Virus record (IMG/VR): IMGVR_UViG_3300047564_000728
Span: 1 to 21,084 of that record
DNA from: a virus
Reading direction: 5' to 3' (one strand)
Length of the DNA: 21,084 nucleotides
Below, one piece after another: positions 812 to 6,994 of this stretch (its first letter is position 1; each line of letters begins with the position of its first letter). The position numbers and the translations under genes were made by a program. Below the pieces are notes generated by a model. That model was not told the origin of the DNA and searched no databases. It saw only the letters and a list, made by a program, of their open reading frames with translations.

Positions 812-1285
812 TTAAGATTGTCTCTTCTTTCTCCACTCTCTCATATAAAGGGCGTGGGCGCTTACCTGTGCCTCTGGAAGGCGTTTTCCCTTGTTCCAAG
901 CAGTTCTACCCTTTAAAGCATCTTTCATCGCTTGTAAGGTCTCTGGGGTGTGTTTGCGACCATAAAAACCGTTATTCTCTCCAGTTCTTCGGCATTTTTC
1001 CCTAAAATCATCACTCATTATAGCGCCAGATGTCCCATCCCCACCATTAGTTCTGTTCCAGAGAATACCACTTTTATTATCTTTTCTTCCAAATACGGCA
1101 ATCATATAAACTTCGTGCTTAAATGCATCTTCTTCAGTTAGGTTATTTTTGAGAATAAGTATTTTTTCTTTTGGTGGAACAGTATGAAATCCGTGCTTAA
1201 CATACGCACGATTTCCTTTCCCCTTACCAACATAGTAGGGCGTTCCATCTTCACGCAAATATGCGTAGGTGTAGTATTCTTTCAT
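812..1285 (-). CDS. GIY-YIG homing endonuclease with NUMOD3 DNA-binding motifs
   Basis: This 157-residue protein is a free-standing phage homing endonuclease. The N-terminal catalytic domain carries the GIY-equivalent YTYAYL (residues 5-10), the YIG-equivalent YYVGKG (17-22), Arg26, the metal-binding Glu58 in HE, and the Asn in WNRTNGGDG (76-84). The C-terminal part has a NUMOD3-like word, GENNGFYGRKHTPE (102-115), a second one in GRTAWNKGK (126-134), and a basic tail, as used for DNA recognition by Seg-type enzymes. It would cut an unoccupied allele in a competing phage and so spread itself. It sits between a helicase gene and an unrelated early operon. No Shine-Dalgarno precedes the ATG; instead one arm of a perfect inverted repeat abuts it and a late promoter lies in the loop (see 1286-1366). 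Confidence 0.93.
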   Translation of the reverse strand: MKEYYTYAYLREDGTPYYVGKGKGNRAYVKHGFHTVPPKEKILILKNNLTEEDAFKHEVYMIAVFGRKDNKSGILWNRTNGGDGTSGAIMSDDFREKCRRTGENNGFYGRKHTPETLQAMKDALKGRTAWNKGKRLPEAQVSAHALYMREWRKKRQS

Positions 1286-2620: not shown

Positions 2621-3022
2621 CTAGAAGAACTGTTCCACCCCCACTGGTTCCCCAAAGGAGTAATCATATGTGAGAGCATCATGGCGCACATAATGTGGAT
2701 GATCAAGAGGAACACCAATTCTTTCACACATTTCTTTATGATTATCTTCCATCAGTTCGACAGCATAAACCATATTATCAATCACATACTGCCGATCATG
2801 ATACTCAGAAAGTTTATCGATAAGAGCGACAATAAAATTACCACATCCAGCAGAGTTATCGATGAATGTCGAAGATGGATCTTTCAATAAATCTTCTTCA
2901 ATTTCAGAAACCATTTCTTCACAAAGTTCTGCTGGAGTGAATACCTCCTGTGTTTCTGCAATACGTTCATCAGATCTTTCAATAGTAGACCCAACATTCT
3001 GATTGTGTTTATTCTTGCTCAT
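2621..3022 (-). CDS. N6-adenine methyltransferase-like protein, SAM-binding part only
   Basis: This 133-residue protein contains the first half of a gamma-class adenine methyltransferase. VFTPAELCEEMV (27-38) matches the motif X region of HsdM/Eco57I-type enzymes (xTPxxlxxxMv), and IDNSAGCGNF (54-63) is a good motif I (DPxxGxGnF), the SAM-binding loop. A further acidic strand (YAVELMEDN, about 87-95) fits motif II. The catalytic (N/D)PPY motif IV is absent; the protein stops before it. It overlaps the end of the 260-residue methyltransferase by 14 bp, has a good AGAGGA ribosome site, and is the last gene of the operon. It could be a truncated remnant or a subunit supplying SAM binding to the NPPF/NPPY proteins; both readings are inference. 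Confidence 0.8.
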   Translation of the reverse strand: MSKNKHNQNVGSTIERSDERIAETQEVFTPAELCEEMVSEIEEDLLKDPSSTFIDNSAGCGNFIVALIDKLSEYHDRQYVIDNMVYAVELMEDNHKEMCERIGVPLDHPHYVRHDALTYDYSFGEPVGVEQFF

Positions 3023-3791
3023 TTTTTTCCTCTAAACACTTAATATACGTTGAGATAAGATCATTCTTACCAAAATGATATCTCCCATTACATTGATTTG
3101 CAACTTCCCGAAATCTATCGGCAAATTCTAGAAAATTTTCAATCACTTGCGGATCACGAACTTTGATAAAATGATGCCCCTTTGCATAGTGAGTGAAGTT
3201 TTCAGTTTTTACCCGCCCACTAGGACCACATCCGTATTCACCAATGAAAACATCGGCATCAAACCTCCTTTCATAAGAAAGGAATTCAAAATCGGGATGA
3301 GATGTATGCATAAAAATCTTCTCACGCTTTTCCTCTTTAACAACCCAGTGCTGCTTTACAGCACTAATACCGCCAGGAAAAGTAGAAGAATTTAGATCCT
3401 CATCAACAACACAGTGTAGATTTGGAGAGATTTTATTCAGAGAAGATGGTTTACGGACAGAAGTTGGCAGCACAAATCTAATATCATCAGTAAGTTGTGA
3501 TGTTTTATTCAAAAATTTGATTGCAAGATTTCCACCAACACCATATGGAGGATTGCCGATTGCCATTGTAAAACGCATCTTCTGTTGGATTAATAGATCT
3601 AGATCTTTTACTATGTTTATTTTAGCATGTTGTTGTCGAATTGCATAGATGTGTGCCTCATTATCTTCCCAAACCCAAATATTTTCTGGTTTAAATCCTA
3701 TCTTAAGCAATCTAAGAGTATGTGAACCGACAGGATCACCAACTATTAGAACTTTACTTGTAATAGGTTGGAATGAACTCGTTGATCGCAT
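3009..3791 (-). CDS. N6-adenine DNA methyltransferase (NPPY type), paralogue B
   Basis: The 260-residue product has the catalytic motif IV as GNPPYG (79-84) and a motif-I-like GDPVGSHTL (18-26), where a canonical DPxxGxG is degenerate. VWEDNEAHIYAI (40-51) fits the acidic motif II strand. The C-terminal part, with YAKGHHFIKV and GRYHFGKNDL words, is probably target recognition. It is a clear paralogue of the next upstream gene: both share GDPxGxHxLR, the VWExxxxHxYAI word and the NPP motif in the same order, so tandem duplication is likely. The ATG at 3791 overlaps that gene by 38 bp; a shorter start cannot be excluded. It would methylate adenine N6, either to protect phage DNA or as the modification arm of the island. 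Confidence 0.85.
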   Translation of the reverse strand: MRSTSSFQPITSKVLIVGDPVGSHTLRLLKIGFKPENIWVWEDNEAHIYAIRQQHAKINIVKDLDLLIQQKMRFTMAIGNPPYGVGGNLAIKFLNKTSQLTDDIRFVLPTSVRKPSSLNKISPNLHCVVDEDLNSSTFPGGISAVKQHWVVKEEKREKIFMHTSHPDFEFLSYERRFDADVFIGEYGCGPSGRVKTENFTHYAKGHHFIKVRDPQVIENFLEFADRFREVANQCNGRYHFGKNDLISTYIKCLEEKNEQE

Positions 3792-4758
3792 CCTTTTGCT
3801 GCTGGTTCAAACCATAATACTCCATAATTTCCTCTTCAGTCCATTTTTGGTCCAGTGGTGGAAGTGGCACATTCTCAATGTAACGAGAAACGTTATTGCG
3901 ATTGGTTGCTTTATTCAAAGCAAGAGCAAATCTTGCATACTTTGTCTTCAAATAAGAAACCAGATTGTCTCGTTCTTCCTCAGAGTTTAAAGAGTAAAAC
4001 TTTCCCTCATTATTGTCGGAATTATAAATGTTGCTGTTACGATAGAAAAAGGTGTAAAAATCATCGCAGAACAATTTCTTTTCCGAATTGATAGTGGCGT
4101 GGCCACAAATAGTAGGAAGATTTAAAGGAACCGAATTAATATTTGATGTACGAAGTGATAAGAGGTTGGATTTTGCTGCTTCAGCAGTAATAAGATCTCT
4201 AAGTTCATAATTTACATCAGTTGGTTCCCAGTATCCAGTTGGAAAGTCATTAAGGGAATCAATGTAATAAGTATTTCCTGTTGTTTTATACTCAACTTCA
4301 ATAGGTCCGAAGTGTTCTTCTTTTGCTTTTGTGATTACAAGAGGTGCCTGAAACTGAGCCCCAGCAAAAACTGGTGTTCCATTAAAAATTGTGAGTTTGT
4401 GTACTCTATTTTTGAGAGCTTTTCTTACATCTTTTTCAATTTGTTTCTCACTACGAGTTAACCATCCAGATGGATGAATTATGTTAACATTTTTAGATGT
4501 TTCTAATGCCTTTAGCAAAAATTCTAGATGCAATTGCCCCTTGAATGGGGGATTACCCATTGTTAAATAAAAATTCATATCTATACTCTGATAATCCTCC
4601 AATATATTAATTTTATCATTAATTTGCTTAATTGCATACACATGGGTAGAATCATTTTCCCAAACAGATATATTTTCTGCTTTATAACCTTTTTGAATGG
4701 ATCTAAGGGAATGAATTCCATTCGGATCTCCAAGAATACAGAGAGCAGGATTATTCAT
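3754..4758 (-). CDS. N6-adenine DNA methyltransferase (NPPF type), paralogue A
   Basis: This 334-residue protein carries motif IV as GNPPFKG (68-74) and a motif-I-like GDPNGIHSL (10-18). Residues about 100-330 form the C-terminal region typical of Eco57I/type ISP-like adenine methyltransferases, with a VPLPPLD word followed by EEIMEYYGLNQQQKDAI, the short helical end often seen in these families. It is longer than its paralogue B and may hold a complete target-recognition domain. Its ATG (4756-4758) overlaps the TGA of the helicase upstream (TGATG), which indicates translational coupling and suggests that modification and helicase act together. Substrate sequence cannot be predicted. Confidence 0.87.
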   Translation of the reverse strand: MNNPALCILGDPNGIHSLRSIQKGYKAENISVWENDSTHVYAIKQINDKINILEDYQSIDMNFYLTMGNPPFKGQLHLEFLLKALETSKNVNIIHPSGWLTRSEKQIEKDVRKALKNRVHKLTIFNGTPVFAGAQFQAPLVITKAKEEHFGPIEVEYKTTGNTYYIDSLNDFPTGYWEPTDVNYELRDLITAEAAKSNLLSLRTSNINSVPLNLPTICGHATINSEKKLFCDDFYTFFYRNSNIYNSDNNEGKFYSLNSEEERDNLVSYLKTKYARFALALNKATNRNNVSRYIENVPLPPLDQKWTEEEIMEYYGLNQQQKDAINEFIPTYYK

Positions 4759-6884
4759 CAGAAGAGATCACCAAATAAATCATCGATCAATTCTACAGGC
4801 ATCGACTGCTGACTCTGCCGTGAGCAGGACAGTTTCTCAAGTGTCTTGCACTCATCAATGCTAATAGAGTTCTGAATGTCTATGACTGCTTGATTGATTC
4901 GATAAGAGAACGATTTTACATCAATAACTTCATCAAAAATCAATGTCTCAATGATCTTTTCCGCATCAAGAGTGTTATAAACGTAGTGATCAGTATTAAT
5001 CAAACTGTGAACACTATTGGGGATGATTCCACTCTTAATACAGTGGTAAATCGTAAGAGGAACTCTCTCCAGAATTGCAAGAATCGTCTCTTTTTTAGTG
5101 AGAACAAGTGAATTATCTTGCTTTTCGGAGGATTCACCATCGCGTTGAATGTTTCCTTTACCATTAGCACCATTGTCATTCACCTCTCGCTTACTACCAT
5201 TGTTCTTTTCCTTAGAAAGGAGAGACAAATTGAATTGACAATTTGCAAGTTTGTCCATATCCATGCTGTTCACGATGTTAGAAATCAGAGAGATAGTGTT
5301 AGTGACATCGGAAGCAAGAATTGAAGCGACCTGTTCTTGAGTCATAATCACAAAACCATTCGACCACTCAATGATAGGAATGAAATCGAGCATAATGTAT
5401 TCTGCAATCATTGGATTGTTTTCACACGCAGCAATAAAAATCTCACGAAGGGTTTTAAGGCATCGCTGAGGGCAAAAATCAATTACATCCCAATCACGAT
5501 CAGATGATCCACCACGGAAAGCAAATTGAGTCCAAAAGTTGATGGATTCACCTTCACTAGCATTGATAACAGTATCAATTTCGGGAATAGTAACACCAAG
5601 AACATTAGCAGAAACAGTCAGAATAATGGTGTATTCGTTTTCTGCAACGTGCTTTCTAATTGTGTCAGAATCTTCTTTCGTATCTCCAGTTACAACCAGA
5701 GGGGCAAACTTAGTCTTCTCCAAATACTTAACAGAAGCATGACATGCTGCCACTGAGGGAAGTGTCATAAAGATATGAAACTTACCATTCAAAAGTCGAT
5801 CCTTTGGTTTTAGATGCTTTTGGTCTCCAAAGGTCTCGGAATAGAAATCTTGTACCAAGGATGGTTGAACAAAATCAGTCTCTCCCTTTTCAATGGAGAA
5901 AAGATTCTTCATTGCATCAGGATCGTCTCCGTACAACTTCTTATATTCTTCCGTCTCATATTTTTTAAGAATAACTCTCATCGAAGGGGCATTGTTCAGA
6001 CCCAGTTTTTTATCCAGTTGCTCCTCAAAATAAGAGTAAGTATAAGAATTAGACTCGGAGAAGTCCCAAACCATAGAAAAAGCAGTGCCAGTTACATACA
6101 GAACCTGACAATCAAACTTCTTACGGAGTTTCTTAAATTGAGTTGAATTGTAACCCTGGTGTGCCTCATCATAGACGATCAGATCTACATCACATGGAAT
6201 CTTGTTCCAGCGATTGTTACCCTGAATTGTGGTCCACAAAACCAGTTGTTTGTCAGTATTATACCAATAATCAATCTGCTCCAGATAGTCTTTATCTGCG
6301 AGATTGATGAATACAATATTGTTGAAAGTTGAAAAGTTTTTGCTATCTTCCTTCCAAGATTGGATAGGAGAGGTATAACGAGAAACGATCAAACTTACTT
6401 TGACACCTTTACGTGCAATTGCTGATAGAACCATGATGGACTTACCAGCACGGCATTTAGCAAACAATAGAAACTCTTTCCACTCTTCCCAAGAAGAAAG
6501 GACTTTATTCAGAAATTTTTGTTGATGCTTCTTAAGCGTCAGATCTTTCTTAGACTTGGGAGTCTCAGGAAAAAATTCTTTTTCAATACGATTAGCAAGA
6601 ATATAAAGATCTACCTTATGAGAAAACCATTCAGCAAACTTTTGAATTGTAGGTTGTTTCTTCAACCAATCATGAACCCAAGTATCTAAAACAGAAACAC
6701 CTTCCCACCAACCAATTACAATCAGTTTTTCTCCCCTTGCTTTCAAATAATTATGAAACTTTGCCCAGTCACCATCTTTATGGCGTTCTTCAAGAGGACG
6801 TTCGGTCATACCAAAACAGAAGACCTTGAGATCCTCTGAAGCAAGCATATAAAGATTTTTCTTGATCTTAAAACCAGTCGTCAT
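4758..6884 (-). CDS. SF2 helicase with N-terminal GIY-YIG/T5orf172-like domain (restriction-subunit-like)
   Basis: The 708-residue protein combines two parts. Residues 1-100 resemble a GIY-YIG superfamily (T5orf172) domain: LYML (11-14), VFCFGMTERPLEER (21-34) in the YIG-plus-Arg position, His71 in TWVHDWL and Glu85 in EWF. Residues about 112-500 are an SF2 helicase: KKHQQKFL (118-125), Walker A AKCRAGKS (142-149), DEAH (239-242), VTGTA (264-268) and a motif VI-like QFAFRGGSSDRDW (453-465). The C-terminal 200 residues are unassigned and charged. The architecture fits a restriction endonuclease motor subunit, and three methyltransferase-like genes follow by overlap. In the YIG position Phe replaces Tyr, so nuclease activity is uncertain. 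An extended -10 lies 33 bases upstream of the ATG. Confidence 0.85.
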   Translation of the reverse strand: MTTGFKIKKNLYMLASEDLKVFCFGMTERPLEERHKDGDWAKFHNYLKARGEKLIVIGWWEGVSVLDTWVHDWLKKQPTIQKFAEWFSHKVDLYILANRIEKEFFPETPKSKKDLTLKKHQQKFLNKVLSSWEEWKEFLLFAKCRAGKSIMVLSAIARKGVKVSLIVSRYTSPIQSWKEDSKNFSTFNNIVFINLADKDYLEQIDYWYNTDKQLVLWTTIQGNNRWNKIPCDVDLIVYDEAHQGYNSTQFKKLRKKFDCQVLYVTGTAFSMVWDFSESNSYTYSYFEEQLDKKLGLNNAPSMRVILKKYETEEYKKLYGDDPDAMKNLFSIEKGETDFVQPSLVQDFYSETFGDQKHLKPKDRLLNGKFHIFMTLPSVAACHASVKYLEKTKFAPLVVTGDTKEDSDTIRKHVAENEYTIILTVSANVLGVTIPEIDTVINASEGESINFWTQFAFRGGSSDRDWDVIDFCPQRCLKTLREIFIAACENNPMIAEYIMLDFIPIIEWSNGFVIMTQEQVASILASDVTNTISLISNIVNSMDMDKLANCQFNLSLLSKEKNNGSKREVNDNGANGKGNIQRDGESSEKQDNSLVLTKKETILAILERVPLTIYHCIKSGIIPNSVHSLINTDHYVYNTLDAEKIIETLIFDEVIDVKSFSYRINQAVIDIQNSISIDECKTLEKLSCSRQSQQSMPVELIDDLFGDLF

Positions 6885-6916: not shown

Positions 6917-6925
6917 ATTATAGCA
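6917..6925 (-). promoter_or_regulatory. Extended -10 promoter candidate for the island operon
   Basis: TGCTATAAT on the minus strand directly follows a terminator hairpin, exactly as at 2580-2588. No recognisable -35 sits at the proper distance. Initiation would leave a leader of about 26 bases before the helicase ATG at 6884. Confidence 0.55.
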
Positions 6926-6926
6926 G

Positions 6927-6994
6927 AAAAGGAACCCTTGTGAGGTTCCCTGTCCACTTTATAAACTGTCATAGCCGTTGTCTTTAACGACCAC
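6927..6994 (-). ncRNA. Candidate short RNA between promoter and terminator
   Basis: The stretch runs from the start point predicted for the 7001-7029 promoter to the T run of the terminator, about 68 bases. No credible gene lies in it; the best frame, after a TAG, is the short peptide NTFVVVKDNGYDSL ending in TAA at about 6960, which might instead be a gene remnant or leader peptide. Existence of the RNA is inferred only from the flanking signals. Confidence 0.35.
6931..6949 (-). terminator. Rho-independent terminator
   Basis: On the minus strand GGAACC-TCACAAG-GGTTCC is followed at once by TTTT (6927-6930). The 6-bp core can be lengthened by a G-U and an A-U pair. It could end the fibre gene transcript and any RNA from the promoter at 7001-7029. 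Confidence 0.7.

What the first reader, a model, noticed from the sequence alone, without database searches (positions are those of the whole stretch)
2621..6884. Compact restriction-modification-like operon in a T4-like phage: helicase, two methyltransferases, split third
Four overlapping genes encode an SF2 helicase with a nuclease-like N-terminus, two NPPF/NPPY adenine methyltransferases and a motif-I-only fragment. The order and coupling look like a restriction or phage-exclusion system, not a lone protective methylase. No classical type I specificity subunit and no type III Res/Mod arrangement is seen, so it may be a new combination serving anti-competitor defence, self-modification or host DNA attack. 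Motifs are seen directly; system-level function is inference.
Basis: partly seen in the sequence, partly recalled or inferred. Interest (0 to 1): 0.75.

Follow-up and report, generated by a model that had tools for sequence, protein, structure and literature searches.

The report
Phage-borne mix-and-match DNA restriction-modification cassette
A T4-like cyanophage carries a four-gene set (DNA-cutting motor, two target-recognising DNA methylases and a small shared cofactor-binding subunit) that looks like a home-grown restriction-modification system whose cutting and recognition parts are swapped like cassettes between related phages, probably to mark the phage's own DNA and attack unmarked host or rival DNA.

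Summary
All four genes are real, at the stated coordinates (minus strand, overlapping) and under purifying selection (dN/dS 0.07-0.11 against the nearest relative). The 133-aa gene is not a fragment of a third methylase. It is a conserved full-length subunit carrying motifs X-I-II-III. All 99 testable copies lie in a methylase cassette, and in Aeromonas phages it is fused to the NPPY half. P1 is a T5orf172/GIY-YIG-type nuclease domain on an SF2 motor. In 38 of 38 testable relatives P1 overlaps, abuts or is fused to an NPPY-type methylase, and in 37 of 38 the small subunit is adjacent. In near-identical cyanophage isolates the whole cassette is swapped for a PD-(D/E)XK nuclease + UvsW-like helicase + methylase, with one breakpoint at the start of the small-subunit gene. 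The N-terminal half of each methylase adjoining or fused to a motor co-varies one-to-one with the motor type (53/53). Best reading: a modular, ATP-dependent restriction-modification system, found almost only in phages; the small subunit supplies AdoMet binding in trans. It works like Type ISP or CglI but is neither; Types I and III also fail. Whether it attacks host or rival-phage DNA is inferred. No activity has been measured and no prior description was found.

The parts
4758..6884 (-). P1: restriction-type subunit, 708 aa; GIY-YIG/T5orf172-like nuclease domain + SF2 (ResIII) motor + C-terminal region
   Evidence: Pfam ResIII 8.6e-8; phrog_22930 1.8e-238; Walker A (KCRAGKS) and DEAH-type box conserved in relatives; dN/dS 0.11 for the part after the N-terminal domain
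6549..6884 (-). P1 nuclease-like domain (aa 1-112; conserved Y12, G25-x-T27, D67, E85)
   Evidence: AlphaFold pLDDT 82; Foldseek viral library: the named top hits are mostly T5orf172/MUG113/GIY-YIG, prob 1.00; PDB hits weak, with Slx1/HIGLE recurring; homologous domain of L119 hits T5orf172 above cut-off
3754..4758 (-). P2: methyltransferase/recognition subunit 1, 334 aa, NPPF
   Evidence: family profile matches M.TaqI from motif IV on; phrog_11371 1.4e-24; aa 63-334 are 73% identical to S-CAM7 SB42_055
4573..4758 (-). P2 N-terminal degenerate Rossmann-like half (GDPNG), motor-type-specific adaptor
   Evidence: GDPxG type found with P1-type motors 38/38, other types with other motors
4543..4554 (-). 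P2 catalytic motif IV NPPF
   Evidence: invariant N-P-P in alignment
3009..3791 (-). P3: methyltransferase/recognition subunit 2, 260 aa, NPPY, different C-terminal region
   Evidence: phrog_5172 1.1e-68; Eco57I and PADLOC MTase_II hits; C-half 72% identical to P-SSM2_036; dN/dS 0.067
3543..3554 (-). P3 catalytic motif IV NPPY
   Evidence: invariant in alignment
2621..3022 (-). P4: constant AdoMet-binding-type subunit, 133 aa, motifs X-I-II-III, no motif IV
   Evidence: phrog_4376 1e-73; TIGR02987 2.8e-6 over aa 28-84; P-SSM2 orthologue hits N6_Mtase 21-86/311 above cut-off; profile aligns with CamA 28-83; with an MTase cassette in 99/99 loci
2834..2866 (-). P4 motif I FIDNSAGCGNF
   Evidence: invariant A-G-x-G-N in 23 sequences
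6922..6958 (-). intrinsic-terminator-like hairpin separating the upstream tail gene from the cassette
   Evidence: -18.8 kcal/mol, z = -4.5; T-rich 3' side TTTTCT
6917..6925 (-). extended -10 promoter-like TGCTATAAT, 32 nt before the P1 start codon
   Evidence: perfect TGnTATAAT within 220 bp upstream of P1 in 11 of 26 relatives

Best explanation
The four genes encode one modular, ATP-dependent restriction-modification-type system found almost only in phages. P4 binds S-adenosylmethionine (motifs X, I-III) and completes the methyltransferase fold in trans. P2 and P3 are two catalytic/recognition chains (NPPF and NPPY plus different C-terminal target-recognition regions), so the phage probably marks two different adenine motifs. 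Their N-terminal degenerate Rossmann-like halves act as adaptors to the motor. P1 is the restriction subunit: on unmethylated target DNA its SF2 motor hydrolyses ATP and moves, and its GIY-YIG/T5orf172-like domain cuts. A promoter-like site of the host sigma-70 type, behind a terminator, suggests expression early in infection. Phage DNA is methylated and spared; unmethylated host or rival-phage DNA is attacked. Shown by sequence: genes, domains, motifs, conservation, coupling, cassette exchange. Inferred: AdoMet binding in trans, adaptor role, cleavage, timing, biological target.
For: Coupling: 38/38 P1 homologues with downstream sequence have an MTase overlapping, abutting or fused (15 fused as 1,015-1,101-aa chains); P4 adjacent in 37/38. 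P4 with an MTase cassette in 99/99 loci, MTase directly upstream in 87 (the printout counts the window twice). Split MTase: the P4 profile aligns to CamA 28-83 (motifs X/I) and the P2 profile to M.TaqI from motif IV. In P-SSM2 a 193-aa NPPY half overlaps the P4 gene. Aeh1p090 fuses a P2-type and a P4-type half in one chain whose model matches TaqI/CamA, and Type ISP LlaGI weakly. Nuclease. In near-identical isolates P1 is replaced by a separate PD-(D/E)XK-like protein (invariant E, D-G-[IV]-D-G, QxK) plus a UvsW-paralogue helicase. Modularity: cassette replaced between 99.5% identical flanks with one breakpoint at the P4 start. P1 nuclease domain 26% vs motor 92% identical between window and L012. 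N-half type matches motor type 53/53. Own promoter-like site behind a terminator hairpin.
Against: No methylation or cleavage has been measured. The window's own nuclease domain is not recognised by Pfam; PDB fold hits are weak and direct profile comparison with the T5orf172 set was weak. D67 stands where GIY-YIG enzymes usually have Glu. P2 and P3 carry their own Rossmann-like half, so P4 might be a docking or regulatory subunit rather than the AdoMet site. L107 lacks P4 in the sequence held. The model of the fused protein is only moderately confident (pLDDT 70) and TM-scores are low. The recognition regions are assigned by position only.
Confidence: 0.68

Rival explanations
1. Protective modification only: P2, P3 and P4 methylate phage DNA against host restriction, and P1 is a DNA-remodelling helicase that helps the methylases travel along replicating DNA but does not cut.
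For: Many relatives carry only the split methylase with no motor or nuclease (19 short NPPY-half loci). The nuclease domain of P1 is divergent with Asp at the usual Glu position.
Against: Nuclease-type domains recur with the motors: T5orf172/GIY-YIG in P1, PD-(D/E)XK in the alternative cassette; and a LEM-3-type GIY-YIG is fused to the methylase in Klebsiella phages. Different nuclease folds filling the same slot argue for cutting.
Confidence: 0.15
2. The cassette degrades the host chromosome for nucleotides early in infection (like Chlorella-virus R-M enzymes, from general knowledge) rather than excluding rival phages.
For: A sigma-70-type promoter-like site, insulated from the upstream tail gene, suggests early expression; unmethylated host DNA would be a substrate.
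Against: Swapping of recognition and restriction modules among near-identical phages is what an arms race between phages would give; a host-degrading enzyme needs no such diversity. No cleavage data.
Confidence: 0.35
3. A homing or mobile element: the GIY-YIG-type domain makes breaks that spread the cassette between phage genomes, and methylation merely protects the recipient site.
For: The GIY-YIG superfamily includes homing enzymes; a GIY-YIG-like + NUMOD3 gene lies 1.3 kb beyond P4 at 812-1285; cassettes are exchanged with sharp borders.
Against: In the alternative cassette the nuclease is PD-(D/E)XK-like with a UvsW paralogue; ATP motors plus methylases are not homing hardware; cassettes replace each other rather than inserting into empty sites.
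Confidence: 0.08
4. P4 is a regulator or docking factor and P2/P3 use their own GDPxG half to bind AdoMet.
For: P2 and P3 have a conserved half before motif IV, placed like motifs I-III.
Against: That half lacks the glycine-rich GxG and changes type with the motor; it is absent in P-SSM2-type chains, which keep P4; P4 has canonical, invariant motifs X and I.
Confidence: 0.25

Closest known systems
Type ISP restriction-modification enzymes (LlaGI, LlaBIII)
   Same: Nuclease + SF2 ATPase + gamma-type adenine methyltransferase + recognition domain; in MA01, L059, L111 and others nuclease-like domain, motor and methylase are one chain of 1,015-1,101 aa. The fused MTase model also hits LlaGI weakly.
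   Different: Nuclease is GIY-YIG/T5orf172-type, not Mrr; window genes are separate; a separate 133-aa motif X/I subunit accompanies nearly all; two recognition chains. Type ISP composition is quoted from the abstract of PMC4666363.
CglI / NgoAVII three-gene ATP-dependent R-M systems
   Same: Separate nuclease, DEAD-family helicase/ATPase and methyltransferase genes (PMC4267653), as in the alternative cassette of ACG-2014f C90 and S-CAM7 SB42.
   Different: Different nuclease fold and methyltransferase class (from knowledge: PLD-type nuclease and C5 methylase), bacterial, no split AdoMet subunit.
Type III R-M (Res/Mod, e.g. EcoP1I of phage P1)
   Same: ResIII-type SF2 motor beside an adenine methylase; a phage-borne example exists (PMC2962900).
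   Different: Mod family N6_N4_Mtase (PF01555) not found; methylases are gamma-type with motif X-I on another chain; no C-terminal endonuclease domain recognised in P1.
Type I R-M (HsdR/HsdM/HsdS)
   Same: ATP motor + adenine methylase with exchangeable recognition parts; P4 resembles the first part of N6_Mtase.
   Different: No HsdS; catalytic NPPY and AdoMet motif I are on different proteins.
Type IIG / BcgI-like nuclease-methylase fusions
   Same: The S-SKS1 and Klebsiella PKO111 versions are nuclease-methylase fusions without a motor.
   Different: They still keep a separate motif X/I protein; the window version has a motor.
Circularly permuted and orphan DNA adenine methylases of jumbo phages (PMC7824862)
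   Same: M.EcoKI-like methylases and a circularly permuted form are reported in jumbo phages.
   Different: The passages read do not describe a split methylase with a motor-nuclease subunit.

Membership tests
Type ISP R-M | single polypeptide with nuclease, SF2 motor, methylase and recognition domain | tested here: not met
   four separate ORFs in the window, though fused forms exist in relatives
Type ISP R-M | Mrr-type nuclease | tested here: not met
   N-terminus resembles T5orf172/GIY-YIG
Type ISP R-M | SF2 helicase-like ATPase | tested here: met
   ResIII 8.6e-8; conserved helicase motifs
Type ISP R-M | gamma-type N6-adenine methyltransferase | tested here: met
   P2 profile to M.TaqI, P4 profile to CamA (weak E-values 0.008-0.01 but complementary); motifs split over two proteins
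Type III R-M | Mod of the N6_N4_Mtase family | tested here: not met
   no PF01555 match in the window record; Eco57I-like weak hit instead
Type III R-M | Res with C-terminal PD-(D/E)XK nuclease | tested here: inconclusive
   only ResIII and Helicase_C recognised; C-terminus not modelled
Type I R-M | HsdS specificity subunit | tested here: not met
   no such Pfam, NCBIfam or PADLOC match among the four proteins
Type I R-M | single-chain HsdM with motif I and NPPY | tested here: not met
   canonical motif I on P4, motif IV on P2/P3
CglI/NgoAVII R-M | separate R nuclease and DEAD-family helicase/ATPase | tested here: not met
   nuclease-like domain and motor are one chain in the window; separate only in the alternative cassette
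CglI/NgoAVII R-M | cytosine-C5 methyltransferase | tested here: not met
   adenine-type NPPF/NPPY; no DNA_methylase family hit
GIY-YIG superfamily nuclease (P1 N-terminus) | fold and core motif Y...GxT...R...D/E | tested here: met
   fold hits; invariant Y12, G25, D67 and nearly invariant T27; Asp at the usual catalytic Glu position
Restriction-modification system (function) | methylation-sensitive DNA cleavage | not testable with these tools
   needs biochemistry or long-read sequencing of virion DNA
Phage orphan DNA methylase | methylase without linked restriction gene | tested here: not met
   P1 overlaps P2 by 1 nt and the linkage is conserved

The most novel reading that the evidence does not exclude
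Cyanophages and other T4-like phages carry a phage-native restriction-modification platform of a new design. One constant AdoMet-binding subunit serves interchangeable catalytic/recognition chains, and a degenerate N-terminal Rossmann half is the plug that fits one of at least four SF2 motors bearing GIY-YIG-type or PD-(D/E)XK nucleases. Phages trade these cassettes to attack rival phages and host DNA.
Probability: 0.45. Interest if true: 0.85.

Novelty: new variant of a known kind. Interest (0 to 1): 0.74.

Why it matters
Complete restriction systems in lytic phages are rarely recognised; here a whole family goes mostly as 'hypothetical protein' (phrog_22930, 11371, 5172 and 4376 are all 'unknown function') and the motor escapes PADLOC. 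If active, it would be a weapon by which marine viruses mark their own DNA and destroy that of hosts or rivals, in a design (AdoMet subunit in trans, adaptor half matched to the motor) that shows how R-M systems can be assembled from phage parts, including a paralogue of the phage recombination helicase UvsW. Sequenced isolates that differ at this locus between near-identical flanks (S-CAM7 0910CC49 vs 0910SB42; ACG-2014f C24 vs C90) make it directly testable.

Tried and rejected
(1) P4 as a decayed methylase: rejected, conserved full length in all architectures. (2) Type III Mod: no PF01555. (3) Type I: no specificity subunit, split motifs. (4) Capture from bacteria: no P1 relative found in 84,980 prokaryote genomes; P4 found once, on a 20-kb MAG contig with a UvsW relative, probably phage. 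The scans are pattern-based, so distant relatives may be missed. (5) PDB sequence search with the motor profile: nothing at E<=0.01. (6) PDB search with the T5orf172-type domain profile: only lipocalin noise. (7) hhalign of the window-type N-terminus against the T5orf172-type set: weak, E 0.007, probability 5%; settled instead by fold comparison. (8) T4-type late promoter TATAAATA: none in the window. (9) Literature: ten searches of open-access papers found no description of this cassette; subscription papers were not searchable. (10) Structure models of P1 as a whole, of P2/P3 with P4 as a complex, and of the GDPxG half could not be made (two folding jobs, no multimers).
Full report
OBSERVATION. 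The window is a 21,084-base IMG/VR virus record whose baseplate hub/lysozyme protein matches marine Synechococcus and Prochlorococcus phages. Upstream is a gene that looks tail-fibre-like, downstream a UvsW-like helicase (1385-2566) and a GIY-YIG-like + NUMOD3 gene (812-1285). A terminator-like hairpin (-18.8 kcal/mol, z = -4.5) and an extended -10 TGCTATAAT, 32 nt before the P1 ATG, set the cassette off from the upstream gene. A perfect TGnTATAAT occurs within 220 bp upstream of P1 in 11 of 26 loci. That suggests, but does not prove, early expression.

WHAT EACH GENE IS. P1: Pfam ResIII 8.6e-8, phrog_22930 at 1.8e-238, function unknown. Walker A, DEAH-type box and later helicase motifs are conserved among relatives. 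Its first 116 residues were modelled (pLDDT 82). In the viral structure library the named top hits are mostly T5orf172, MUG113 and GIY-YIG proteins at probability 1.00; PDB hits are weak but GIY-YIG enzymes Slx1 and HIGLE recur. The homologous domain in L119 passes the T5orf172 cut-off, and the Klebsiella phage PKO111 protein has a LEM-3-type GIY-YIG domain at 2.7e-15. P2 and P3 have invariant N-P-P-[FY] preceded by a D-P-x-G half without the canonical GxG. The P2-family profile aligns to M.TaqI from motif IV onward. P4 has motif X and motif I with invariant F-T and A-G-x-G-N; its profile aligns to CamA residues 28-83, and its P-SSM2 orthologue passes the N6_Mtase cut-off at model positions 21-86. 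So P4 carries the part of a gamma-class adenine methylase that the NPPY chains lack.

P4 IS A PARTNER, NOT A RELIC. P-SSM2 has a 193-aa NPPY half overlapping the P4 gene. Aeromonas phage Aeh1 has both halves in one 415-aa chain, in the order NPPY half then P4 half; phrog_11371 shows the same fusion. The model of that fused protein best matches TaqI and CamA, weakly also Type ISP LlaGI. Of 99 P4 genes with at least 1.2 kb upstream, all 99 have a methylase within 4.2 kb on the same strand and 87 have it directly upstream (the printout says 100/88 because the window was entered twice). S-CAM7 CC49 and SB42 and contig L045 hold two P4 copies, each with its own methylase.

COUPLING. Among 38 P1 loci with downstream sequence, the methylase overlaps, abuts or is fused in 38 (23 adjacent, 15 fused) and P4 is adjacent in 37; L107 is the exception. 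Synechococcus phages MA01, MA10, ME01 and MC09, S-CAM7 CC49 and two ACG-2014f isolates carry P1.

MODULARITY. ACG-2014f C24 and C90 are about 96% identical on both sides of a cassette that is P1 + methylase in one and PD-(D/E)XK-like nuclease + methylase + helicase in the other. S-CAM7 CC49 and SB42 are 99.5% identical on both sides of it, and one breakpoint falls at the start of P4. The alternative nuclease shows invariant E, D-x-G-[IV]-D-G and QxK in eight sequences, though Pfam sees at most a weak Mrr_cat hit. Its helicase is a UvsW paralogue (255-320 bits both ways). Within P1, the nuclease domain is 26% and the motor 92% identical between window and L012, while window and L011 share 93% in the nuclease domain, at dS 0.09. 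P2 residues 63-334 are 73% identical to SB42_055, which sits with the PD-(D/E)XK module, but residues 1-62 only 27%. Across loci the N-terminal half of the methylase next to or fused with a motor matches the motor type one-to-one: GDPxG with P1 (38/38), FDA with the UvsW-like motor (7/7), AKEP with a third motor (4/4), ALSG with a fourth (4/4). Most chains without that half have no restriction module nearby (22 of 23). L026 has the window's gene order but the third motor, and both its methylases carry the AKEP half. I read that half as the adaptor to the motor. The loci are related, so these counts are not independent trials.

MECHANISM. The best-supported model is one ATP-dependent restriction-modification machine: P4 supplies AdoMet, P2 and P3 recognise and methylate two adenine motifs, and P1 moves along unmethylated DNA and cuts. 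Selection keeps all four intact (dN/dS 0.067-0.108 against L012). Steps that are inference: AdoMet in trans, adaptor role, cutting, early timing and the target. Frequent exchange of specificity modules between near-identical phages favours conflict between phages; host-DNA attack is not excluded.

COMPARISON. It works like Type ISP enzymes (abstract of PMC4666363) and, in the alternative cassette, like the three-gene CglI/NgoAVII systems (PMC4267653), but fails defining features of both and of Types I and III. PADLOC has no model for P1. Pattern scans of 84,980 prokaryote genomes found no P1 relative and a single P4 relative on a phage-like MAG contig. Iyer et al. (PMC7824862) list permuted adenine methylases in jumbo phages; the passages read do not mention this cassette. 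Ten literature searches found no description.

VERDICT. New variant of a known kind; function untested.

Noticed in passing
window 812-1285: GIY-YIG-like gene with a NUMOD3 motif (1.9e-10) downstream of uvsW: a likely homing endonuclease, separate from the cassette.
   Followed up: no
L005 6106-7494 (PSSM2_038), L025 1780-2802, L029, L030, L033, L040: A gene that looks ParB-like by eye sits between P4 and UvsW in several relatives but not in the window; it may be an accessory of the methylase locus.
   Followed up: no
L099 2491-4426 (Klebsiella phage PKO111): GIY-YIG nuclease fused to an NPPF methylase, overlapping a P4-like gene annotated 'DNA methyltransferase': a distant version without a motor; the fusion is 95% or more identical in several Klebsiella phages and about 50% in Shigella phage PSD9.
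   Followed up: partly
L008 3662-5399, L036-L042, L065-L069: About 450-aa proteins that look like a GIY-YIG-type domain plus NPPY methylase, upstream of P4, common in marine contigs: a motor-free IIG-like form.
   Followed up: partly
L006 7497-8948, L004 11116-12561, L009 701-2098: The helicase of the PD-(D/E)XK cassette is a clear UvsW paralogue (255-320 bits), suggesting a restriction motor recruited from the phage's own recombination helicase.
   Followed up: partly
L078, L082, L084, L092: 1,020-1,177-aa single chains (nuclease-like N-terminus + SF2 + Eco57I-type methylase) upstream of P4, with a fourth motor family; Type ISP-like layout.
   Followed up: partly
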